Positions 4,184 to 11,446 of a DNA stretch of 14,612 bases are shown here, one piece after another (position 1 is the stretch's first letter; every line of letters begins with the position of its first letter). The stretch covers positions 1 through 14,612 of the forward strand of contig CALKDJ010000076.1 of NCBI GenBank assembly GCA_938084195.1, given 5' to 3'. Origin of the DNA: an uncultured Methylophilaceae bacterium (GTDB taxonomy: Bacteria; Pseudomonadota; Gammaproteobacteria; Burkholderiales; Methylophilaceae). Below the pieces are notes generated by a model. The model made no database searches, was not told where the DNA came from, and saw only the letters and a list, made by a program, of their open reading frames with translations. A program made the position numbers and the translations under genes.

Positions 4184-5890
4184 ATGGATATCAGCAAAAC
4201 TCTTTCAGAAAACAGAATTGACCTTAAACACCAACAAGAAGGGAATCAAAAAGTTAAATGTCCACAATGTCAACCACCCCACAATCCTAGAGACACGCCA
4301 CTCTCAGTAACTATAAATTCAGATGGTGTTGTTTGGAATTGTCATCATTGTGAATGGAAAGGTGGTAAGAAAACAGGCGGACTGCACACACCATATAAAA
4401 AGAAGGAATACATAAAACCTAAAGAGCCTGTAGTTAGCAGTGATCAGTTTATGCTCAATTACTTTAAGAAAAGGGGTATCAGTGAACATGTCATCAAGGA
4501 ATTTAAAATATTTAATGAAAACAATTGGATAGGTTTTCAGTATTTTGATGAAAATGGTTCTTTGGCTAATATCAAGTACAGAACAACGGAAAAACAATTT
4601 AGACAAACACCAAACACTAAATCCACCCTGTATAACTTTGATAGGATATGTAACTCAGATACTGTAATTTTCACTGAGGGTGAAATGGATGTCCTTTCAT
4701 TGGCTGAGTGTGGTATTAATTATGGAACAACCCTACCTAATGGTGCACCAAAAGAATACAAAGGTGATAAAAATGATGCAAGGTATAAAGCACTTGAAAA
4801 TTGTAAGTTAGTTGCGAAGAAAATAGTTTTGTTCACTGATAACGATACAAGTGGCAAAGCTTTGCACAAAGAATTGCTACATAGGTTTGGTAAAGACATA
4901 TGTTGGTATGTGCAAATTCCTGATAATTGTAAAGATGCAAATGATGTTTTGGTTAAACATGGTGCTATGAAACTTAGAGAGATCATAGAGGGTGCTGAAC
5001 CATATCCTATAGAAGGCTTACACACTGCTAGAGACTATTATGATCAGATTAATGACTTATATGAAGGTAACTACGAAAAACCCACTGAGATTGGCTTAGA
5101 AGGTCTAGACGATATATATAAGCCAATGACTGGAACATTCTGCGTGATAACTGGAATACCGAATCATGGTAAGTCTGCTTTCCTTGATCAATGTCTAATA
5201 AAGTTGGCTGAGAATCAAAATTGGTCATTTGCTTTATTTTCTCCTGAGCACTCAACATCAATGCACATAAGAAGATTATTACAAATGTACACTGGAAAAT
5301 CTTTTGATGAAGGGTTCAGTAATAGAATGACAAAAACTGAAATGGTTGCTGCCTTAGAATTTATACACAAACATTTTTATTTCATTGAAACTAAAGATGC
5401 TATACCTTCAATAGATTTGATACTTAACATAGGCAAGAGTGCCATTTACAAACATGGTATTAAAGGTTTGGTTATTGACCCATTCAATGAAGTGTCAGCC
5501 ATAAGGAGTGGAAACCAAAGGGAAGATGAACACATAAGAGATTTTATTTCTTTGTGCAAAAGATTCACAAGAATATATGAAATATGTTGTTGGGTAATTG
5601 CACATCCGACTAAACTTCCCAAAAGTCAAGATGGTTCTTATACACCACCTACTGCATATGACATCAGTGGTGCTGCACATTGGCACAATCAAGCTGATGC
5701 AGTTTTGACAGTACATAGAGATTTTGATAATAACAGCACGAGTGTTATAACTAGAAAAATAAGAGAGCAAGGCTTATATGGTAAAATCGGCGAAGCTAAA
5801 TTTACTTATGACTTGAACAAACATATATTCAAAAAATACGAAAATGAAGAAGATGACTGGGATGATTATGTTGGCAGGTTTGGAGGTTAA
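4184..5890 (+). CDS. Primase-helicase, T7 gp4-like
   Basis: A 568-residue bifunctional replication enzyme that would unwind the fork and lay RNA primers. The N-terminus has a zinc ribbon with C26/C29 (CPQC) and C53/C56 (CHHC). The TOPRIM primase domain has EGEMD (165-169) and DND (219-221). The C-terminal RecA-like DnaB-family helicase domain has Walker A TGIPNHGKS (323-331), Walker B LVIDPFN (429-435), a glutamine/histidine-type motif around IAHPTK (472-477), and GAAHWHNQAD followed by RKIREQG, the likely arginine-finger region. Length and domain order match T7 gp4. It follows the initiator gene after three bases and ends tail-to-tail with the modification operon, the two stop codons overlapping. 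Confidence 0.93.
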   Translation: MDISKTLSENRIDLKHQQEGNQKVKCPQCQPPHNPRDTPLSVTINSDGVVWNCHHCEWKGGKKTGGLHTPYKKKEYIKPKEPVVSSDQFMLNYFKKRGISEHVIKEFKIFNENNWIGFQYFDENGSLANIKYRTTEKQFRQTPNTKSTLYNFDRICNSDTVIFTEGEMDVLSLAECGINYGTTLPNGAPKEYKGDKNDARYKALENCKLVAKKIVLFTDNDTSGKALHKELLHRFGKDICWYVQIPDNCKDANDVLVKHGAMKLREIIEGAEPYPIEGLHTARDYYDQINDLYEGNYEKPTEIGLEGLDDIYKPMTGTFCVITGIPNHGKSAFLDQCLIKLAENQNWSFALFSPEHSTSMHIRRLLQMYTGKSFDEGFSNRMTKTEMVAALEFIHKHFYFIETKDAIPSIDLILNIGKSAIYKHGIKGLVIDPFNEVSAIRSGNQREDEHIRDFISLCKRFTRIYEICCWVIAHPTKLPKSQDGSYTPPTAYDISGAAHWHNQADAVLTVHRDFDNNSTSVITRKIREQGLYGKIGEAKFTYDLNKHIFKKYENEEDDWDDYVGRFGG

Positions 5891-6336
5891 TCTTTAATTG
5901 TTTTCTTAGCTACTCTATCTCTTAATTCTGTTGATGAAAATGAATGTTCTCTTTTATTAAAATATACTTTTACGCTTTCAATATCACACCCAGTAAAATT
6001 CGTTCCTTTATATTCTTCACCCACGAATCTTATATCAGGCTTTACAAGTAAGAGCATATCAACTATGTCTTGCTCAGTTGAGAAGGGTATAACACAATCT
6101 ACATACTCTACAGCTTGTAACTGCACCCATCTTTCAAATATGCCTTGTATTGGTTTATTTTTTTTATCAGGTCTATCTAATGTTGGGTCATTCAAAAGAC
6201 CAACTACTAAATAATCACAATTCGCTTTTGCTTCTGCTAACATTGATACATGTCCTGCATGTAAAATATCAAATGTGCTACATGTATATCCTACAATTTT
6301 TTTTAATTTTTTATTTTTTTCAATCTCAGATAACAT
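5887..6336 (-). CDS. HxGH nucleotidyltransferase, glycerol-3-phosphate/choline-phosphate cytidylyltransferase-like
   Basis: This approximately 149-residue enzyme belongs to the nucleotidyltransferase superfamily that includes TagD (CDP-glycerol), choline- and ethanolamine-phosphate cytidylyltransferases and the adenylyltransferase half of HldE (ADP-heptose). Numbering from the GTG at 6339, it has GYTCSTFDILHAGH (17-30) with the HxGH signature at 27-30, ERWVQLQAVEYVDCVIPF (69-86), and a C-terminal R130 followed by SSTELR, matching the family's R...STT motif. It would join a phosphorylated sugar or alcohol to CMP (or AMP). The ATG at 6336, with GAAGG upstream, is preferred over the GTG. It is the last gene of the modification operon and overlaps the kinase gene, suggesting that it activates that enzyme's product. 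The exact nucleotide and substrate cannot be read from sequence. Confidence 0.8.
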   Translation of the reverse strand: MLSEIEKNKKLKKIVGYTCSTFDILHAGHVSMLAEAKANCDYLVVGLLNDPTLDRPDKKNKPIQGIFERWVQLQAVEYVDCVIPFSTEQDIVDMLLLVKPDIRFVGEEYKGTNFTGCDIESVKVYFNKREHSFSSTELRDRVAKKTIKD

Positions 6337-7330
6337 CACATAAACCTTCTATTTTTTGCAAACATAATTTTTTATCATCTGTATATTTATAAAAACGAAT
6401 CCAATGTGTTAACTCCAAAGATTTCATAGGTATATTTTTATATCTCGCCCTCATGTAATCATTGCCCTCAATCCTTCCAAACATGATATTGAACCTTTCA
6501 CATGACATTGATAGTTTACTGATATCTAAGAGCCAACTCGTATAATCATTTTTGTTATATATCGGGTCAATGTTGTAAATTTTTTTATCTGATGTTATGT
6601 AGTTATCAATTGATGCGTCTCCATGACAAAATGATTTGTTTTCATTCATATAATCAATATCAGGTAAAAATTCTATAAGACTGCGTGATAAGTTCGCATT
6701 GTCAATGTGTTCAATCAGTCTATCTATATAAACATCAAAATTATTTTCGTTTAATTTAATGTTTTTATAAGTTTCAATTTGATCACATATTTTTGATATG
6801 TTGTTGTCATTAAGTTTTTCAATGTAATCCATTGTTATAGTACCACCAACTAGCTTATGAACTTTCGGTACAGGCAAATTTAATGCTTCTGCTTTTTTAT
6901 ACCAATCAATCACATCAATCGCGTTGCTTTGCGTTTTGTATACTAAATCGTTTTGTCGCAATACATATGATCCACTCATGCCATATAATCTTTCTACTTT
7001 TAAATCTGCAAATTCTTGTGGTTTTAATGCTTTGTCGTCAACATAGTATGCTCCTAAGATTTTATTGAATGATAATTGATCGTATTTGACTTTATGTTTT
7101 TCTAACCATGACTCTATTTGTTTTCTATATTTATCATCTGCTTTTTTGTAATCACCACCACAGCTTAGTTGACCCCTCGCTGTCAAAATTATAATTTCCC
7201 AACCATTTTCATGGAGTTCATTTATTTTTTCTATGACAGGTGTGACTGGTTTTGAATTATCCCAATCTCTGTTCAGAGTAACAGAGATGGTGTCGTCTAA
7301 ATCACATACTATTCTTTTTTCGTGATTCAT
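6326..7330 (-). CDS. Fusion of HAD phosphatase and APH-fold kinase
   Basis: The 334-residue protein joins two enzymes. Residues 1-110 are a HAD phosphatase resembling the EcbF/BcbF capsule-biosynthesis type: DLDDT (10-14, nucleophile D10), ILTARG (48-53), K90 and YYVDDKA (95-101). Residues 115-334 are a kinase of the aminoglycoside phosphotransferase/choline kinase fold: a glycine loop GMSGSY (117-122), likely K132, a hinge with TMDYIE (166-171), the catalytic loop CHGDASIDN (235-243, base D238) and metal-binding D255 in YNIDP. Kinase plus phosphatase plus the next gene's nucleotidyltransferase is the standard logic for making an activated sugar or phospho-alcohol. The gene overlaps both neighbours (29 and about 11 bases) and has GGAAG before its ATG. 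Both catalytic sets look intact; substrates are unknown. Confidence 0.8.
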   Translation of the reverse strand: MNHEKRIVCDLDDTISVTLNRDWDNSKPVTPVIEKINELHENGWEIIILTARGQLSCGGDYKKADDKYRKQIESWLEKHKVKYDQLSFNKILGAYYVDDKALKPQEFADLKVERLYGMSGSYVLRQNDLVYKTQSNAIDVIDWYKKAEALNLPVPKVHKLVGGTITMDYIEKLNDNNISKICDQIETYKNIKLNENNFDVYIDRLIEHIDNANLSRSLIEFLPDIDYMNENKSFCHGDASIDNYITSDKKIYNIDPIYNKNDYTSWLLDISKLSMSCERFNIMFGRIEGNDYMRARYKNIPMKSLELTHWIRFYKYTDDKKLCLQKIEGLCDVI

Positions 7331-8096
7331 AAGCTTTCTTCCATTGAATTATCGCTTCCAATCTTTTGTTGTCACCTTCTTCAGTTGTCCAATTAGGGTT
7401 TATCTTATATTTAAGTTTTACAAAATCAGGAAATTCGTTTTGTAATGTTTTGTAACACAATTCATGGGTCTGATTATTTCTAAATACTGAGTTGCCACCT
7501 TTTTTTCCGTGACTATGACTGAATGCGTAATTGTATAAGATCAAATTTTTTTTTCCTTTCGTAAGAAGCGATAACAATGCATAAAAATCTTCAAAATTTT
7601 TAGCTCCTGTTTTTTTATACATACCATCAAAACTTAGATTGTTATCTTTGAAGGTTTTAGTGTTTATTGCATAACATGAATATGATCTTTGTATTTCTTT
7701 TGTACTTTCTAAAACTCTATTATTGCCTGCCCTATCACTTATACCGACCCAAATATAATCATCAAGTTTATTTTCTAATTCTTGTAACATTGATTCATAA
7801 GCATGCGGATTCATTCTCCTTAATTTATTTTCTGAGTTCCTTTCATAAAATAAACATTGGTCATCAACGATAAATATTTTTTCATCTTCATATTTATCAA
7901 TAATTTTTTGTCTTGTATCTGCGATACCATCAGTTACACCAAGATCAACGATCTTAGCCTTGCGGTTATAATATTTTAATAAATCAACCCTTGATGAATC
8001 TGTGGCGAGATATGTTATATCTTGTATGTCAGGGGGCAAATTTTTCCACGATTTTTGGTTATCTTCTCGCATGTATGTAGGAATAATAATTTTCAA
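7302..8096 (-). CDS. TET-associated-type glycosyltransferase (GT-A fold)
   Basis: A 264-residue GT-A-like glycosyltransferase. The N-terminus KIIIPTYMRE (2-11) is the nucleotide-binding start typical of GT-A enzymes, TDGIADTRQKII (55-66) resembles the conserved R-containing segment of the TAGT family, and IFIVDDQ (74-80) supplies the metal-binding acidic motif at D78/D79. EDFYALLSLLTKG (169-181) resembles the catalytic-site ED-x-D segment, and FSHSHGKKGG (192-201) is a His motif. TAGT enzymes occur beside phage TET/JBP oxygenases and are predicted to glycosylate the hydroxylated base. The start is a TTG overlapping the oxygenase stop as TTGA, implying strict coupling. The GT-A fold is well supported; TAGT membership depends on the motif pattern and neighbour and should be tested by profile search. 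Confidence 0.75.
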   Translation of the reverse strand: MKIIIPTYMREDNQKSWKNLPPDIQDITYLATDSSRVDLLKYYNRKAKIVDLGVTDGIADTRQKIIDKYEDEKIFIVDDQCLFYERNSENKLRRMNPHAYESMLQELENKLDDYIWVGISDRAGNNRVLESTKEIQRSYSCYAINTKTFKDNNLSFDGMYKKTGAKNFEDFYALLSLLTKGKKNLILYNYAFSHSHGKKGGNSVFRNNQTHELCYKTLQNEFPDFVKLKYKINPNWTTEEGDNKRLEAIIQWKKAYESRKKNSM

Positions 8097-9016
8097 TTAA
8101 TTTTATCCCCTTCTTTTCTTTTCTTTGCCCTTTCAAGTTCTTCTTCCATAGTCTTGCAATATTTAATATTTTCTCTGTAATAACAAACTATAGATACTCT
8201 TTCGTATGGTGTTTTAGAATCCATTTTTGTATTACCATGAACTTGATGCACATCAAAGTAACAAACATCACCACTACTCAAATCAAAAGCACAGTCATAT
8301 CTAGGCATAACTGTATACCCACCTTGATATTTACCTGCACTCAAAACTGCTAAATTGCCCAACCCTTCTTTTAAATCTCCAGCATCTGTGTGATATGCGG
8401 TTTGAAAATTTTTATTAACTGTAACTGTGCTGAAAACTGTATCAGTGATAATAAAATCTTTACTGCTTTGATCTACAACTTTTTTTTGTGCTTGATATCT
8501 TTCAGGGCATGCTTCTTCAAACATATGGCTTATAAATTTCAAAAAAGGTATAGATTTACTAAACGCATCTTTATTTTTTTCTGTAAAAGCTGTTTGCCTA
8601 CAGTAAGGGAATCTAGTATTCCTATCAAAATAGCCTGCTATCCCTGAATTCACTTTTTTTGCCCTCATTACCTTGCTCAGAGTTCCGTCTTGTTTTATCT
8701 CTCTGTATCTATGGGTTGATATAGTTTTGTGACCTATTTGATCATCGCTATCTAGAGGACCTGCTGCTGTTCCCCTGTTCTCAGTTTTTGTTGCTGCGTT
8801 TCTTAAGTTGTAAAATGCAGTTTCACAAACTTCTTTTGGAATTTTACCTTTTCTGAAAAAAAATAATGGTTCGCCATCATCAGTATAAGCATCGCAATCA
8901 TCGTTGATTAATATCTTATAATCATTATCTGTCGCATACCTGCCCCTAAGATTATCAGTTTCTTTTTTAGTTAATACAGGCGATAAGGTTAATTTAGGAA
9001 TTTCTATCTGATTCAT
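8093..9016 (-). CDS. TET/JBP-like 2-oxoglutarate/Fe(II) dioxygenase
   Basis: A 307-residue oxygenase resembling the TET/JBP family, which oxidizes the 5-methyl group of cytosine or thymine in DNA. The double-stranded beta-helix core shows the iron-binding HTD (H209, D211), followed by GNLAVLSAGKYQGGYTVMP (220-238), SSGDVCYFDVHQVHGN (247-262) with distal ligand H260, and YERVS with R273 as the likely 2-oxoglutarate-binding arginine. The TENRGTAAG segment (78-86) resembles the conserved N-terminal part of phage members. The C-terminus (about 288-307) is a charged, lysine/glutamate-rich tail. There is little Shine-Dalgarno sequence before the ATG, which lies inside the ParB-like gene (23-base overlap), so translation is probably coupled. 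Whether it acts on 5-methylcytosine or thymine is not visible. Another 2-oxoglutarate oxygenase family is the alternative; the context makes DNA the likely substrate. Confidence 0.82.
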   Translation of the reverse strand: MNQIEIPKLTLSPVLTKKETDNLRGRYATDNDYKILINDDCDAYTDDGEPLFFFRKGKIPKEVCETAFYNLRNAATKTENRGTAAGPLDSDDQIGHKTISTHRYREIKQDGTLSKVMRAKKVNSGIAGYFDRNTRFPYCRQTAFTEKNKDAFSKSIPFLKFISHMFEEACPERYQAQKKVVDQSSKDFIITDTVFSTVTVNKNFQTAYHTDAGDLKEGLGNLAVLSAGKYQGGYTVMPRYDCAFDLSSGDVCYFDVHQVHGNTKMDSKTPYERVSIVCYYRENIKYCKTMEEELERAKKRKEGDKIN

Positions 9017-9623
9017 TTTTTACTGCGTTGAAAACAATATCAGAGTAATTATCTTGATTGTATTTATCTTTTAATTTATCTAACATATTTTTGAATTGTA
9101 CTAATGTATCAATATCATATAACAACATAAATTGTTTTATATTGGTTTCAGGTATTTCAAAATCGTCAGATATGCTTAATGAACTGTAATTCTCATCAAC
9201 CTCTGGAGCATCAAACTTCAATAATTCACTGTTTATTTTTTGTATTTCTTCAAAATCAAAACCAGTCAATTTCAAATCAAAATCGCCTTCAACTAATTTA
9301 TCAAACTCAACTGCTAATTGTGTAGAATCCCAAGACGAAAACTCTTGTGCTTTGTTATCCATTATTCTGAAAGCTGTTTTTTGTGATTCTGTCAAACCTT
9401 TAGCGACCTTCACAGGTACTACATCAAGGTTCATTAATTTCGCTGCTTTCAATCTTGTGTGTCCTGCTAAGATTATAAATTCTTCATCAACAACTATAGG
9501 AACTTGCCAACCGAAATTCTGTATACTATCAATTACACGCTGTACAGTTTTTGCATTCGTTCTGGGATTGTTTTCATATGGCACAATTTTCTTTATATCA
9601 GTTTCAGTGATTTCAAATTTCAT
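8994..9623 (-). CDS. ParB/sulfiredoxin-fold protein, phage DNA-modification type
   Basis: The N-terminal 100 residues form a ParB/Srx domain: VPYENNPRTN (14-23), DSIQNFGWQVPIVVD (32-46), and AGHTRLKAAKLMNLDVVPV (53-71), with the GHTR motif at 54-57, then MDNKAQEFSSWD (88-99). This variant, with GHTR in place of the GERR-type motif of chromosomal ParB, is common at the N-terminus of phage DNA methylases and near other DNA-modifying enzymes. There is no ParA gene or visible parS site, so plasmid-type partition is unlikely. The acidic C-terminal half (100-209) carries no methylase motif. In this operon it probably targets or assists base modification on DNA, perhaps through nucleotide binding; that is inference. 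It starts six bases after the HTH gene and has AAGG about ten bases before the ATG. Confidence 0.82.
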   Translation of the reverse strand: MKFEITETDIKKIVPYENNPRTNAKTVQRVIDSIQNFGWQVPIVVDEEFIILAGHTRLKAAKLMNLDVVPVKVAKGLTESQKTAFRIMDNKAQEFSSWDSTQLAVEFDKLVEGDFDLKLTGFDFEEIQKINSELLKFDAPEVDENYSSLSISDDFEIPETNIKQFMLLYDIDTLVQFKNMLDKLKDKYNQDNYSDIVFNAVKNESDRNS

Positions 9624-9629
9624 TTTTTA

Positions 9630-9845
9630 CTAGCCTTCATTTATATTATAAAAATCATTCGGAGCCACAACTCCCTCAGTAACATCATGCAAAATAACCA
9701 TCTCATTGTGCCTGGGTATTCGCGTTCCTAATATCCATTTAGCTAAAGTACCTTGTGGTATTCGCACCCCTTTAGCCATTTCTATCTGATCAATAAATGA
9801 CATTTGAGTGTAATTATTTTCTTTTAGGTATTGTTGTAATTTCAT
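9630..9845 (-). CDS. Small Cro-like helix-turn-helix protein heading the modification operon
   Basis: A 71-residue protein with one predicted DNA-binding domain. Residues 14-47 fit a Cro/CI-like HTH: a helix around MSFIDQIEMAKG, a turn, and a recognition-helix-like IPQGTLAKWILGTRIPR (29-45), whose ending resembles the W...G.R.P pattern of repressor HTH domains. It is the first gene of the leftward operon, and an intergenic control region of 138 bases separates it from the rightward recombination operon. This suggests that it regulates its own operon, the divergent one, or both. The ribosome site is weak (GGAA). DNA-binding specificity is unknown; repeats in the adjoining control region are candidate operators. 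Confidence 0.75.
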   Translation of the reverse strand: MKLQQYLKENNYTQMSFIDQIEMAKGVRIPQGTLAKWILGTRIPRHNEMVILHDVTEGVVAPNDFYNINEG

Positions 9846-9864
9846 AATTTATATTCCAAATAGT

Positions 9865-9893
9865 ATTATATGTTTTAATTAATATTTTGAACA
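9865..9893 (-). promoter_or_regulatory. Possible promoter of the modification operon
   Basis: On the minus strand a perfect TATAAT (9870-9865) lies 17 bases from a weak -35-like TGTTCA (9893-9888). Transcription would begin near 9858, giving a leader of about 13 bases before the HTH gene ATG at 9845. The region is very AT-rich, so the -10 match could be chance; the correct spacing to the first gene is the main support. Confidence 0.35.
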
Positions 9894-9902
9894 GTCTAAA
9901 TT

Positions 9903-9943
9903 AACACTTTATTTTTTACGAAACACTTTATTTATTCCGTAAA
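9903..9943. promoter_or_regulatory. Candidate operator: direct and inverted repeats in the divergent region
   Basis: The 12-base sequence AACACTTTATTT occurs twice, at 9903-9914 and 9922-9933. Overlapping it, TTTACG (9915-9920) and CGTAAA (9938-9943) form an inverted repeat around a 17-base spacer. The repeats lie between the leftward HTH gene and the rightward recombination operon and next to a TATAAT for the latter, where a repressor would be expected to bind. Whether the HTH protein binds here is unknown. Confidence 0.4.
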
Positions 9944-9977
9944 GGGTTTATAATGATGTTACATAATAAAATGAGGT
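9933..9977 (+). promoter_or_regulatory. Putative promoter and ribosome site of the recombination operon (variant of the repeated element)
   Basis: The box TATTCCGTAAAGGGTTTA (9933-9950) resembles the start of the elements at 2861 and 12435. Here a perfect TATAAT (9949-9954) overlaps the end of the box, so the box would act as spacer or operator and not as the -35 site; any -35 near 9926-9931 is weak. An alternative -10, CATAAT, lies at 9962-9967. A good ribosome site, GAGGT (9973-9977), precedes the ATG at 9984. Confidence 0.45.
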
Positions 9978-9983
9978 AATAAA

Positions 9984-10769
9984 ATGAAAAATAATCCATT
10001 TGAAGTTCATGGCATAGAACACTTATCTGCTAGTGCCATCAATCAATTCATAACCAATCCTGCTTCTTGGATTCTTAAGGTTAGCGGTCATAGAGGTATA
10101 CCAAATCCTGCCATGTGGCGTGGCACTGTTATAGATGATGCTATATGCAAATCTTTTGAAAATGATTTGTCTATAGAAAAGAAATTACAAAGATCAATTT
10201 CTAATTCAGAGTATGATTTTGATTCTTTATACGAACACCATAATGCAACTTATGATTATGAAATAGATGCTGTAGAAAAAGAAAAGAATAATTTACAGAG
10301 ATATTTAGAAGTTGCTATACCATTTTATGCCAAGCTTGGAAAACCCCAAGAGTGCCAAAAAAGAATTGAAGTAGAATTTGAAGATATACCTGTGCCTATC
10401 ATTGGGTATATTGATCTTCAATACGAAGGTATTACTAGAGATATAAAGACCACTGGTCGGCTTATGTCTAAGATACCCTCAACAATCTGTCGTCAGCTTA
10501 GCCTTTACGCCTTTGCTGAGGATAGTGTTCCGTATGCTGATTTCATACATGTTACGAAAGCGAAAGCCGAAGTTGTATCTATTGAAATAACAGATATTGA
10601 AAAAAGAGTGGATGAATTGAAGAAAGCTGCATTCTCTATGATGAATGTTCTTTCATATTCAGATGATATTAACCAAGTGGCAAGTTTGTTCTATCCTGAT
10701 TTTGACGATTGGCGTTGGTCAAACCCAATAGACATAGCTGCTGCGAAAAAACTATGGAGAATAAAATGA
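9984..10769 (+). CDS. PD-(D/E)XK exonuclease, Cas4/RecB-like
   Basis: A 261-residue nuclease of the RecB/Cas4-type PD-(D/E)XK superfamily. Visible motifs are the N-terminal LSASAINQFITNPASWIL (14-31), MWRGTVIDDAI (44-54), a glutamate-rich strand RIEVEFE (127-133), GYIDLQ (141-146) with D144, RDIKTT (152-157) giving D153 and K155, and QLSLYA (171-176), the Q...Y motif. Together they form a complete active site. Phage enzymes of this type degrade one strand at DNA ends and work with a single-strand annealing protein, whose likely gene follows directly with an ATGA overlap. It is the first gene of the second plus-strand operon and has a GAGGT ribosome site. Exonuclease direction and partner are inferred. 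Confidence 0.8.
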   Translation: MKNNPFEVHGIEHLSASAINQFITNPASWILKVSGHRGIPNPAMWRGTVIDDAICKSFENDLSIEKKLQRSISNSEYDFDSLYEHHNATYDYEIDAVEKEKNNLQRYLEVAIPFYAKLGKPQECQKRIEVEFEDIPVPIIGYIDLQYEGITRDIKTTGRLMSKIPSTICRQLSLYAFAEDSVPYADFIHVTKAKAEVVSIEITDIEKRVDELKKAAFSMMNVLSYSDDINQVASLFYPDFDDWRWSNPIDIAAAKKLWRIK

Positions 10770-11446
10770 GTGCTAATTACAAAGAAATTTGGGACACCTT
10801 AAACAAGGTGAGCATGGATAAAATAAAAGATAAAAAAGGTAAATTTGATTATCTCAGTTGGACTGATATGTGGCAAGAGATACACAAATACTTTCCTGAA
10901 GTAGATTATGAATTTAAAGAATTTGATAATCCAACTTATGGAACTATGGATTGTTTGGTATATCCTGATGGCTCTGCATCGGTACATTGCAAAGTTACAA
11001 TCAAAGGCGTAACTAGAACTATGTGGTTAGCAGTTACTGACTACAATAACAATGCAAAGAAGGACTGGAATGTAGTTGATATTGCTAATACAAAAATGCG
11101 ATGTCTAACTAAATGTATGTCTATGTTTGGACTGGGTGCACACATATATAGAGGTGAGGATTTAGAAGATAGGGTTGAAACTAAAGAAATAAAAAACACT
11201 ACTAATCAACAAAAAACAAATGGATTCATATTAAAAAGAATTGATGATGATGAAGTCTCTATAGATGGAACACCTGTAGATTATATCCAATCTATTAGAG
11301 TTCAAATGGCATTACTTGATGAACCCAAACGCAAAGAATTATTTTCATTAAATACAGCAGAGATAGAAAGAGCATATCTTTCAATTGAAACTAAGGATGT
11401 AAGCTTGAAAGATTCGTATGAAAAGATGGTGGACTTGTATGCCTAA
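10766..11446 (+). CDS. DUF1071/Sak-like single-strand annealing protein
   Basis: The 226-residue protein resembles the DUF1071 family of phage single-strand annealing (Sak/Rad52-like) recombinases. Supporting segments are FDYLSWTDMWQEIHKYFP (27-44), the strand-rich core with YPDGSASVHCKVTIKG (66-81), AVTDYNNNA (89-97) and VDIANTKMRCLTKCMSMFGLG (104-124), then IYRGEDL (127-133). The C-terminal half is variable and probably flexible. It starts at the ATG at 10766, overlapping the nuclease stop as ATGA, with GGAGA just upstream; an earlier in-frame ATG at 10709 lies inside the nuclease gene and is not needed. Exonuclease plus annealing protein matches the lambda Red-type recombination pair. Assignment is from remembered family motifs. 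Confidence 0.75.
   Translation: MSANYKEIWDTLNKVSMDKIKDKKGKFDYLSWTDMWQEIHKYFPEVDYEFKEFDNPTYGTMDCLVYPDGSASVHCKVTIKGVTRTMWLAVTDYNNNAKKDWNVVDIANTKMRCLTKCMSMFGLGAHIYRGEDLEDRVETKEIKNTTNQQKTNGFILKRIDDDEVSIDGTPVDYIQSIRVQMALLDEPKRKELFSLNTAEIERAYLSIETKDVSLKDSYEKMVDLYA

What the first reader, a model, noticed from the sequence alone, without database searches (positions are those of the whole stretch)
5887..9845. A compact six-gene operon predicted to build a hypermodified DNA base
One leftward unit, five of its genes overlapping, encodes an HTH protein, a ParB-fold protein, a TET/JBP-like oxygenase (HTD 209-211, H260, R273), a TAGT-like glycosyltransferase, a HAD-APH fusion and an HxGH nucleotidyltransferase. 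TET/JBP oxygenases with TAGT glycosyltransferases are known from phages and linked to oxidized, glycosylated pyrimidines. The added donor-activating enzymes suggest that the phage makes its own decorating group. The combination is not one I can match to a described modification, so it may be a new one. It sits as a self-contained block between two plus-strand replication and recombination operons.
Basis: partly seen in the sequence, partly recalled or inferred. Interest (0 to 1): 0.88.

Follow-up and report, generated by a model that had tools for sequence, protein, structure and literature searches.

The report
Phage kit for sugar-decorated DNA bases
A phage carries a compact gene set that probably oxidises a base in its own DNA, makes an activated sugar and attaches it, and in related phages the oxidising core is kept while the decorating genes are swapped, which suggests a plug-in way of disguising phage DNA.

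Summary
The six-gene operon is real and the family calls hold: HTH, ParB, TET/JBP oxygenase, TAGT glycosyltransferase, HAD-APH fusion, HxGH nucleotidyltransferase (NT). Best reading: ParB and TET hydroxylate a pyrimidine in DNA, HAD + APH + NT build a nucleotide-activated sugar, and TAGT transfers it.

(1) In 83 related records the ParB-TET core is constant (ParB in 74 of 75 testable), but the downstream genes are exchanged: TAGT types in 28, amino-acid:DNA-transferase and/or kinase types in 46; the window's own set in 6. (2) No cytosine-C5 methyltransferase was found in the 83, and sister cassettes resemble 5-hydroxymethyluracil chemistry, so thymine is a likelier target than 5-methylcytosine. 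(3) The HAD and APH domains are homologous to parts of the donor module of phage RB69, whose DNA carries arabinose; RB69's nucleotidyltransferase is replaced by another fold and its isomerase was not found. The HAD-APH + NT pair also occurs near hydroxymethylase-type genes elsewhere.

Sugar, base and chemistry are unproven. New variant of a known kind: phage TET/TAGT hypermodification with a self-made donor.

The parts
9630..9845 (-). HTH (XRE-like) protein, 71 aa, first gene, possible operon regulator
   Evidence: HTH_3 0.0012, below cut-off; phrog_2967 regulator 0.00034; the HTH cluster (c5) recurs just upstream of ParB in the close relatives L001-L004, L006-L012, L021, L022, L026 and others
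8994..9623 (-). ParB-N domain protein, 209 aa, probable DNA-recruiting partner (inferred)
   Evidence: PF02195 over cut-off; phrog_620 4.8e-47 and phrog_498 DNA methyltransferase 3e-41; PADLOC MTase_II 4e-28; upstream of TET in 74 of 75 records with at least 700 bases there
8093..9016 (-). TET/JBP 2OG-Fe(II) oxygenase, 307 aa, HxD 209-211, H260, R273
   Evidence: PF12851 4.8e-25; motif invariance; H...R pattern 83 of 83; H.D.GD pattern 79 of 83, three of the other four still show HxD by eye and one (L090) has ambiguous letters
7302..8096 (-). TAGT glycosyltransferase, 264 aa, TTG start, invariant D78-D79
   Evidence: PF20691 3.1e-9; GT-A-type model pLDDT 94.2 with TarS/TarP/RmlT the best Foldseek matches; D78 D79 invariant in 36 sequences
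6326..7330 (-). HAD phosphatase (EcbF/BcbF-like, 1-~110) fused to APH-fold small-molecule kinase (~111-334)
5887..6339 (-). HxGH nucleotidyltransferase, 150 aa (TagD/RfaE-domain-II-like)
   Evidence: PF01467 3.1e-11; rfaE_dom_II 1.4e-22 and g3p_cytidyltrns 2.8e-15, both below cut-offs; PDB ethanolamine-phosphate and glycerol-3-phosphate cytidylyltransferases
9846..9983 (.). divergent intergenic region before the operon; two 19-nt direct repeats at 9903-9940
   Evidence: repeats not found in the matching regions of L003, L004 and L006, so no operator is claimed
4184..5890 (+). flanking primase-helicase, convergent neighbour, conserved in relatives
   Evidence: phrog_239 6.6e-80
9984..11446 (+). 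flanking PD-(D/E)XK-like (just below Pfam cut-off) and Sak single-strand annealing genes (two ORFs)
   Evidence: phrog_10230 2e-26; PF12705 21.6 of 22 bits; PF06378 3e-28

Best explanation
A phage DNA-hypermodification operon. Step 1 (inferred): the ParB-domain protein brings the TET/JBP oxygenase to DNA, and the oxygenase hydroxylates a 5-methyl group in place, more likely that of thymine (to 5-hydroxymethyluracil) than of 5-methylcytosine. Step 2 (inferred): the HAD domain removes the terminal phosphate from a host sugar phosphate, the fused APH-type kinase re-phosphorylates the sugar, most likely at its anomeric carbon, and the HxGH enzyme turns the sugar-1-phosphate into an NDP-sugar. Step 3 (inferred): TAGT transfers that sugar to the hydroxymethyl group. 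The HTH protein probably controls the operon. The ParB-TET core is a chassis onto which related phages plug different decorating cassettes. Shown here: families, active-site residues, fold, conservation, cassette exchange, and homology of HAD and APH to the RB69 arabinose module. Not shown: substrate base, sugar identity, any enzyme activity.
For: Families and motifs. Near relatives keep HTH-ParB-TET and the flanks but swap the rest: window vs L006 has TET 87%, primase-helicase 80%, TAGT only 30%, no HAD-APH, and NT only as a distant HxGH-cupin fusion (32% over 69 aa). Census of 83 records: 28 TAGT-type, 46 ADDT- and/or kinase-type, 3 FkbM, 3 APS-kinase type, 3 cut short. C5 methyltransferase PF00145 in 0 of 83, two of them complete phage genomes (HTVC112P, P12024L). 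Thymidylate-synthase family over cut-off in 0 of 20. TET of L009, with ADDT + kinase, is 64% identical to the window's, so the core probably makes the same base for both cassette types; 5hmdU DNA kinase acts on 5hmdU (passages of PMC7653180). HAD-APH followed by NT in 14 of 14 records, near a gene annotated deoxyuridylate hydroxymethyltransferase in AB434P2, a thymidylate-synthase-family gene plus an AGT-type glucosyltransferase in L099, and TAGT in L098 and L101. A profile of HAD-APH matches RB69 ORF051 (3.7e-25) and ORF052c (5.4e-11). A TAGT-HAD-[NTP_transferase-APH]-TET arrangement exists in isolated phage DLP6, and the L008 cassette is TAGT-HAD-[NTP_transferase-APH]. A sister cassette fuses the HxGH enzyme to a mannose-phosphate-isomerase-type cupin.
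Against: No activity or nucleoside data. Kinase fold matches do not separate sugar kinases from choline/ethanolamine kinases, and the NT resembles alcohol-phosphate cytidylyltransferases as much as sugar-1-phosphate ones. NT relatives are found in 130 phage records, but HAD-APH over at least 80% of its length in only 3, so NT often works without it; in the ones opened, Ab1-TPeters, Va1 and CRP-6, I saw no such pair in the annotation. Sources name some HAD-APH relatives capsule biosynthesis phosphatase, and several relatives lie on long contigs (up to 388 kb) whose context I did not open. RB69's SIS isomerase family was found in 0 of 11 records, so a pentose is not indicated on its own. RB69-type DNA is now reported as 5-arabinosyl-dC without the methylene, so the module does not by itself imply a hydroxymethyl acceptor. 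The thymine inference rests on absence in mostly fragmentary contigs and on sister cassettes whose P-loop kinase is only weakly classified: best Pfam below cut-off, no HMUDK_hel match, and best PHROG named terminase small subunit (phrog_800, 5e-9). HAD-APH + NT also occurs next to a C5 methyltransferase-family gene in L099.
Confidence: 0.58

Rival explanations
1. The oxygenase acts on 5-methylcytosine made by a host or unseen phage methyltransferase, giving glycosylated 5hmC, as in the metagenomic phages of Burke et al. 2021 (recalled).
For: TET next to an HhaI-type methylase exists in Methylophilales phage Melnitz-3. Most records are fragments. L099 carries HAD-APH + NT with a C5 methyltransferase-family gene.
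Against: 0 of 83 TET-core records hold PF00145, including contigs of 54, 54, 47 and 44 kb and two complete phage genomes. 46 of 83 sister cassettes carry ADDT and/or a kinase; 5hmdU DNA kinase is known and the tie of ADDT to 5hmdU is recalled (Lee et al. 2018).
Confidence: 0.2
2. The donor is not a sugar but a CDP-alcohol (CDP-ethanolamine, CDP-choline or CDP-glycerol type). APH makes the phospho-alcohol, the HxGH enzyme adds CMP, and a phospho-alcohol ends up on the base, perhaps through the TAGT-fold enzyme.
For: Best PDB sequence hit of NT is ethanolamine-phosphate cytidylyltransferase. Sources name some close relatives glycerol-3-phosphate cytidylyltransferase. Choline/ethanolamine kinases are among the top fold matches.
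Against: A HAD phosphatase has no obvious place in that route. TAGT is a GT-A-type glycosyltransferase, and TAGT of T6-type phages is assigned to glucose transfer (passages of PMC13216743). The HAD-APH profile scores the RB69 kinase ORF052c at 32.2 bits against 17.2 for the best solved kinase matched in the APH part. Bit scores of two searches, so a rough comparison.
Confidence: 0.12
3. TAGT uses host UDP-glucose, and HAD-APH and NT act later, editing the attached sugar (for example adding a nucleotidyl or phosphate group) rather than making the donor.
For: 17 of 83 TET records have TAGT with no labelled donor genes after it, so TAGT can evidently use a host donor in those phages.
Against: HAD-APH + NT also occurs with quite different transferases and base routes. 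The comparable RB69 module is thought to supply the donor.
Confidence: 0.08
4. The genes modify a cell-surface glycan or serve another purpose, with TET unrelated to them.
For: Some HAD-APH relatives are named capsule biosynthesis phosphatase by sources. Nearest solved TAGT folds include teichoic-acid transferases. HxGH enzymes in cyanophage sugar clusters are read as NDP-sugar makers (passages of PMC7824862).
Against: The genes overlap TET in one operon. TAGT directly follows TET in window, L001-L004, L008, L026 and others. None of the Pfam matches of the six proteins at or above cut-off is a membrane or export family.
Confidence: 0.03

Closest known systems
Phage TET/JBP + TAGT systems predicted by Iyer et al. 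2013 and tested by Burke et al. 2021 (both recalled; papers not held)
   Same: TET/JBP oxygenase with glycosyltransferase in phage
   Different: Here no C5 methyltransferase was found (0 of 83 records), there is a HAD-APH + HxGH donor pair, and a ParB partner in 74 of 75
RB69/Mosigvirus arabinose module (PMC6024577 section 3.4 read; PMC13390438 passages)
   Same: HAD and APH domains are homologous. A NTase is coupled to the kinase. DNA pyrimidine decorated with a sugar other than glucose (RB69).
   Different: RB69 has an NTP_transferase-APH protein, a separate HAD and a SIS isomerase, and makes its base at nucleotide level. The window has HAD-APH fused, an HxGH NTase, no SIS found in relatives, and TET in place of a nucleotide-level route.
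Shewanella phage Thanatos pentose-modified cytosine (PMC12838424 passages)
   Same: A 561-aa protein with predicted glycosyltransferase and phosphotransferase domains and a sugar-activating enzyme are linked to a DNA sugar modification
   Different: Deoxypentose on cytosine, with a hydroxymethyltransferase/thymidylate-synthase gene; not compared by sequence here
Stenotrophomonas phage DLP6 locus and cassette of L008
   Same: TAGT 46% (DLP6) and 60% (L008) identical; HAD; APH; NTase; TET
   Different: NTase is of the NTP_transferase type fused to APH; TET is last in DLP6
Thymidine hypermodification in phages Vi1, M6 and Phi W-14 (Lee et al. 2018, recalled; cited in PMC7653180 and PMC9599517 passages)
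   Same: Sister cassettes on the same TET core carry ADDT and P-loop kinases
   Different: Those phages make 5hmdU at nucleotide level before replication (recalled); here the base would be made in DNA by TET, and the window's cassette is glycosyl-type
Kinetoplastid base J (JBP thymine hydroxylase + glucosyltransferase; recalled)
   Same: Works like it if thymine is the substrate: hydroxylate T in DNA, then glycosylate
   Different: Unrelated host; phage would make its own donor; transferase family TAGT

Membership tests
TET/JBP oxygenase | Profile match over curated cut-off | tested here: met
   PF12851 88.1 bits vs 34.9
TET/JBP oxygenase | HxD...H iron ligands and 2OG-binding Arg | tested here: met
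   H209, D211, H260, R273 invariant in nine sequences; in the census H...R 83 of 83; H.D.GD 79 of 83 by pattern, three more with HxD by eye, one ambiguous. Roles of the residues recalled
TET/JBP oxygenase | Oxidises 5-methyl of thymine or 5mC in DNA | not testable with these tools
   no enzymology
TAGT glycosyltransferase | PF20691 over cut-off | tested here: met
   37.5 bits vs 27.5; the L026 orthologue scores below cut-off at 20.5
TAGT glycosyltransferase | GT-A fold with acidic metal-binding motif | tested here: met
RB69-type arabinose donor module | HAD and APH kinase homologues | tested here: met
   A2 profile hits ORF051 3.7e-25 and ORF052c 5.4e-11
RB69-type arabinose donor module | NTP_transferase-type nucleotidyltransferase | tested here: not met
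   window has an HxGH enzyme instead; met in L008, and in DLP6 by alignment to L008
RB69-type arabinose donor module | SIS arabinose-5-phosphate isomerase | tested here: inconclusive
   PF01380 in 0 of 11 cassette A-C records including complete DLP6, control rings 14 of 14; the window's relatives are fragments, so it could lie elsewhere in the phage
RB69-type arabinose donor module | ORF003c-type arabinosyltransferase | not tested
   window carries TAGT; no search for ORF003c was made
5mC-dependent TET/GT phage system (Burke type) | Phage C5-cytosine methyltransferase | tested here: not met
   PF00145 in 0 of 83 related records; mostly fragments; window's own assembly not held
Thymidine hypermodification (Vi1/M6 type) | dUMP hydroxymethylase (thymidylate-synthase family) | tested here: not met
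   0 of 20 records over cut-off, one weak 13.1-bit match; mostly fragments
Thymidine hypermodification (Vi1/M6 type) | ADDT transferase or HMUDK kinase | tested here: inconclusive
   none among the ten window proteins scanned; 0 of 11 cassette A-C records for PF18724 but no control rang; ADDT-labelled genes in 39 of 83 TET-core relatives

The most novel reading that the evidence does not exclude
In these phages the TET/JBP enzyme is an in-DNA thymine hydroxylase, recruited by ParB, that makes 5-hydroxymethyluracil as a universal docking point. Lineages exchange whole chemical cassettes behind it (sugar with self-made donor, amino acid, phosphate, possibly methylated or sulfated groups). The window's cassette makes its own nucleotide-sugar, not host UDP-glucose, and yields a base J-like nucleotide with an undescribed sugar.
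Probability: 0.4. Interest if true: 0.87.

Novelty: new variant of a known kind. Interest (0 to 1): 0.7.

Why it matters
If true, it adds another way of supplying the sugar for phage DNA (HAD-APH + HxGH) next to host UDP-glucose and the RB69 module, whose precursor is still described as unclear (PMC13390438 passages). The swap of nucleotidyltransferase fold between otherwise equivalent sets gives a direct handle on that open question. The constant ParB-TET core with exchangeable cassettes suggests phages change the chemistry of their DNA by swapping one to five genes while keeping the rest, which would help explain how fast modification-dependent defences are outrun. A phage thymine-hydroxylating TET enzyme would be a useful tool and a comparison for kinetoplastid JBP.

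Tried and rejected
Whole-window megablast against 50,697 phage records: no match. Own assembly not held; the nearest record G001 is a 14 kb fragment. No tRNAs, no Rfam hits. PDB by sequence gave nothing useful for TET (no match) or TAGT (four weak doublecortin matches). Genome contigs for HAD-APH, sought to name the sugar, gave only 4 loci. L099 and L100 look phage-derived and L101 prophage-like by eye, and L098 is a 4.4 kb contig with TAGT and an HMUDK_hel protein, so no capsule cluster helped. Kinase fold matches are tied between sugar, choline and aminoglycoside kinases, so they do not choose the substrate; families not listed there are not excluded. NT profiles are below cut-off for both heptose-1-P and glycerol-3-P enzymes, so neither name is adopted. 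The 19-nt upstream repeats were considered as an operator and dropped. Promoter and terminator scans found no more than shuffles. A first, too strict TET motif pattern matched 32 of 84 sequences, window included; the relaxed one is reported. In one search the NT pattern also missed L026 and L027, whose end motif reads slightly differently, and the HAD-APH pattern missed L008, which has the HAD only.

Census caveats: duplicate loci of one contig, L015 and the window were left out. Cluster labels come from Pfam scans of representatives, not of every member. Unlabelled genes are skipped and strand is not required, so TAGT alone (17) includes P12024L, where an N6/N4-type methylase follows. The NT-cupin gene of L005-L007 was hidden in the census by an overlapping opposite ORF and was identified. 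The PF18724 search had no positive control. PADLOC shows no defence system in the ten proteins scanned, only the ParB-methyltransferase similarity. One notebook count (other ADDT/kinase cassettes, 22) is wrong; 15 plus 7 kinase-only is right. The rivals overlap with each other.

Literature: the listings did not show this combination in titles or abstract starts (one search found no paper). Most subscription papers, Iyer 2013 and Burke 2021 among them, are not held, so prior description cannot be excluded.

Full report
What is there. Six minus-strand ORFs fill 5887-9845: HTH (9630-9845), ParB domain (8994-9623), TET/JBP oxygenase (8093-9016), TAGT glycosyltransferase (7302-8096), HAD-APH fusion (6326-7330) and HxGH nucleotidyltransferase, NT (5887-6339). 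Five of the six overlap. The NT ORF meets the plus-strand primase-helicase ORF tail to tail with a 4 nt overlap. Upstream, the operon is divergent from a plus-strand PD-(D/E)XK-like gene and a Sak annealing gene. The left end of the window carries a large terminase gene and, by eye, a portal-like gene, so this is a tailed phage.

Relatives: constant core, exchangeable cassette. TET-based scans of IMG/VR plus two named phages gave 83 distinct records after duplicates, L015 and the window were removed. The script found ParB among the three genes before TET in 74 of the 75 records with at least 700 bases there, and the listing shows it next to TET; the exception is phage P12024L. What follows TET varies: TAGT alone 17; TAGT + HAD-APH + NT 6 (L001-L004, L026, L027); HxGH-cupin fusion + TAGT 3; TAGT + HAD + NTP_transferase-APH 1; TAGT + FkbM 1; ADDT and/or P-loop kinase, with or without GATase, GNAT, an amidoligase-like protein (my reading; no Pfam or PHROG hit) or DAO, 46; FkbM alone 3; an APS-kinase cassette 3; cut short 3. 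The exchange is recent in places. Window and L006 share TET at 87%, ParB at 71% and primase-helicase at 80%, yet their TAGTs are 30% identical, L006 lacks HAD-APH, and its HxGH enzyme is a distant one fused to a cupin. Window and L026 keep the same cassette at 60% TET identity (TAGT 66%, HAD-APH 54%, NT 70%).

Which base. The TET core of the window is 64% identical to that of L009, whose cassette has ADDT (amino acid:DNA transferase, PF18724) and a P-loop kinase. 5hmdU DNA kinase phosphorylates 5-hydroxymethyl-dU in DNA (passages of PMC7653180); that ADDT-type transferases act on 5hmdU is recalled. PF00145 was found in 0 of the 83 census records (20, 50, 13), while the same search rang in 10 of 14 control genomes and found the L099 gene in its genome. 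It was also absent from complete DLP6. The thymidylate-synthase family, which includes the nucleotide-level hydroxymethylases, was over cut-off in 0 of 20. Together this favours thymine hydroxylated inside DNA. It is an inference: HTVC112P and P12024L are complete genomes, but the IMG/VR contigs carry no rating of 90% completeness. The P-loop kinase is weakly classified, its best PHROG being named terminase small subunit. And a TET directly after an HhaI-type methylase exists in Melnitz-3.

What the last two genes do. HAD-APH is followed by NT in 14 of 14 records in which both could be placed: window, L001-L004, L026, L027, L098-L101, AB434P2, and AB434P3 and MT837767 by their coordinates. The reverse does not hold: NT relatives occur in 130 phage records, HAD-APH over at least 80% of its length in 3. 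The neighbours of the pair differ: TET + TAGT in the window; in Agathobaculum phage AB434P2 a gene annotated deoxyuridylate hydroxymethyltransferase, of the thymidylate-synthase family; in L099 another thymidylate-synthase-family gene about 3 kb away, an adjacent AGT-type glucosyltransferase and, after NT, a C5-methyltransferase-family gene, with a like arrangement in L100 by eye; in L098 TAGT and an HMUDK_hel protein; in L101 TAGT and, by eye, two ParB-like genes. A pair that travels with different base-hydroxylation routes and different transferases is best read as a donor-making module.

Link to a characterised modification. A profile of 26 HAD-APH proteins, RB69 not among them, finds RB69 ORF051 (annotated phosphoheptose isomerase, but HAD-like) at 3.7e-25 and RB69 ORF052c at 5.4e-11, 32.2 bits. 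The best solved kinase matched in the APH part with such a profile scores 17.2 bits. RB69 DNA carries arabinose, and ORF055c (SIS isomerase) and ORF53_52c were proposed to make its donor (PMC6024577, section 3.4 read). A 2026 paper reports mono- and di-arabinosylated dC in relative NP, corrects the RB69 linkage, and calls the precursor unclear (PMC13390438, passages). Shewanella phage Thanatos has a pentose on cytosine and a protein of similar domain make-up (PMC12838424, passages). In L008 and in isolated phage DLP6 the same set of activities, TAGT, HAD, APH and an NTase, occurs with an RB69-like NTP_transferase-APH protein and with TET. So the window has an equivalent set in which the NTase fold is replaced by the HxGH type and HAD is fused to APH. 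HAD removing a terminal phosphate, APH phosphorylating the other end and an NTase activating it is the logic of moving a phosphate from C5/C6 to C1. A choline-type route would not need the HAD. The fusion of an HxGH enzyme with a mannose-6-phosphate-isomerase-type cupin in the sister cassette also points to sugars. The SIS family was found in 0 of 11 records searched, so I do not claim arabinose.

ParB. The ParB-domain protein resembles the N-terminal part of phage DNA methyltransferases (phrog_498; PADLOC MTase_II). I infer that it is the DNA-recruiting partner for TET in trans.

Against this reading. Nothing was measured. The kinase fold and the NT sequence are equally compatible with alcohol substrates. 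Sources name some HAD-APH relatives capsule biosynthesis phosphatase, and I did not open the context of the long contigs among them. TAGT-only cassettes (17 of 83) show that a phage donor pathway is not always needed. The census is a best-scoring sample and cluster labels rest on representatives.

Novelty. Phage TET/TAGT systems, TET-derived bases as starting points for further modification, and phage-made donors are all known or predicted (Iyer 2013, Burke 2021, recalled; RB69, read in part). The combination TET + TAGT + HAD-APH + HxGH NT, the swap of NTase fold, the exchangeable cassettes on a ParB-TET core and the case for thymine were not seen in the search listings. I class it as a new variant of a known kind.

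Noticed in passing
L084:8942-11542 (also L086, L092): After ParB-TET: a protein that looks sulfotransferase-like by eye (no Pfam or PHROG hit), an unclassified protein, then an APS kinase (PF01583, 5.8e-19) and an HxGH protein. Possibly a cassette that makes PAPS and sulfates the DNA base; unproven.
   Followed up: partly
L045-L048, L068, L069, L087: ParB-TET followed by the P-loop kinase alone: predicted phosphorylated 5hm-pyrimidine as a possible end product.
   Followed up: partly
L013 (HTVC112P), L091, L093; L081: ParB-TET followed by an FkbM-type methyltransferase, alone or after TAGT: possibly O-methylation of the hydroxymethyl or sugar.
   Followed up: no
L009:10914-13049, L012, L021, L022: 712-aa fusion (L009) whose C-terminal half is ADDT and whose N-terminal half matches only PHROG 3650 of unknown function; it looks PLP-enzyme-like by eye.
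   Followed up: no
L039:8894-10470: ADDT-like protein next to a DAO-type FAD oxidoreductase and the kinase, as if an attached amino acid were oxidised.
   Followed up: no
L102:3709-4095 (RB69 ORF051) and phrog_1238: Annotated phosphoheptose isomerase in many T4-like phages, but the sequence matches the HAD half; probably a mis-transferred name.
   Followed up: partly
L103:4649-4948: In phage DLP6 a stretch without annotation between TAGT and the NTP_transferase-APH gene encodes a HAD match (41% identical to the window HAD over 100 aa).
   Followed up: partly
L112:999-1316 and 1344-2975: Pseudoalteromonas phage XG4 (unannotated record) carries HAD + NTP_transferase-APH relatives at its start.
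   Followed up: no
window:9903-9940: Two adjacent 19-nt direct repeats (84% identical) in the divergent promoter region; not found in L003, L004 or L006.
   Followed up: partly
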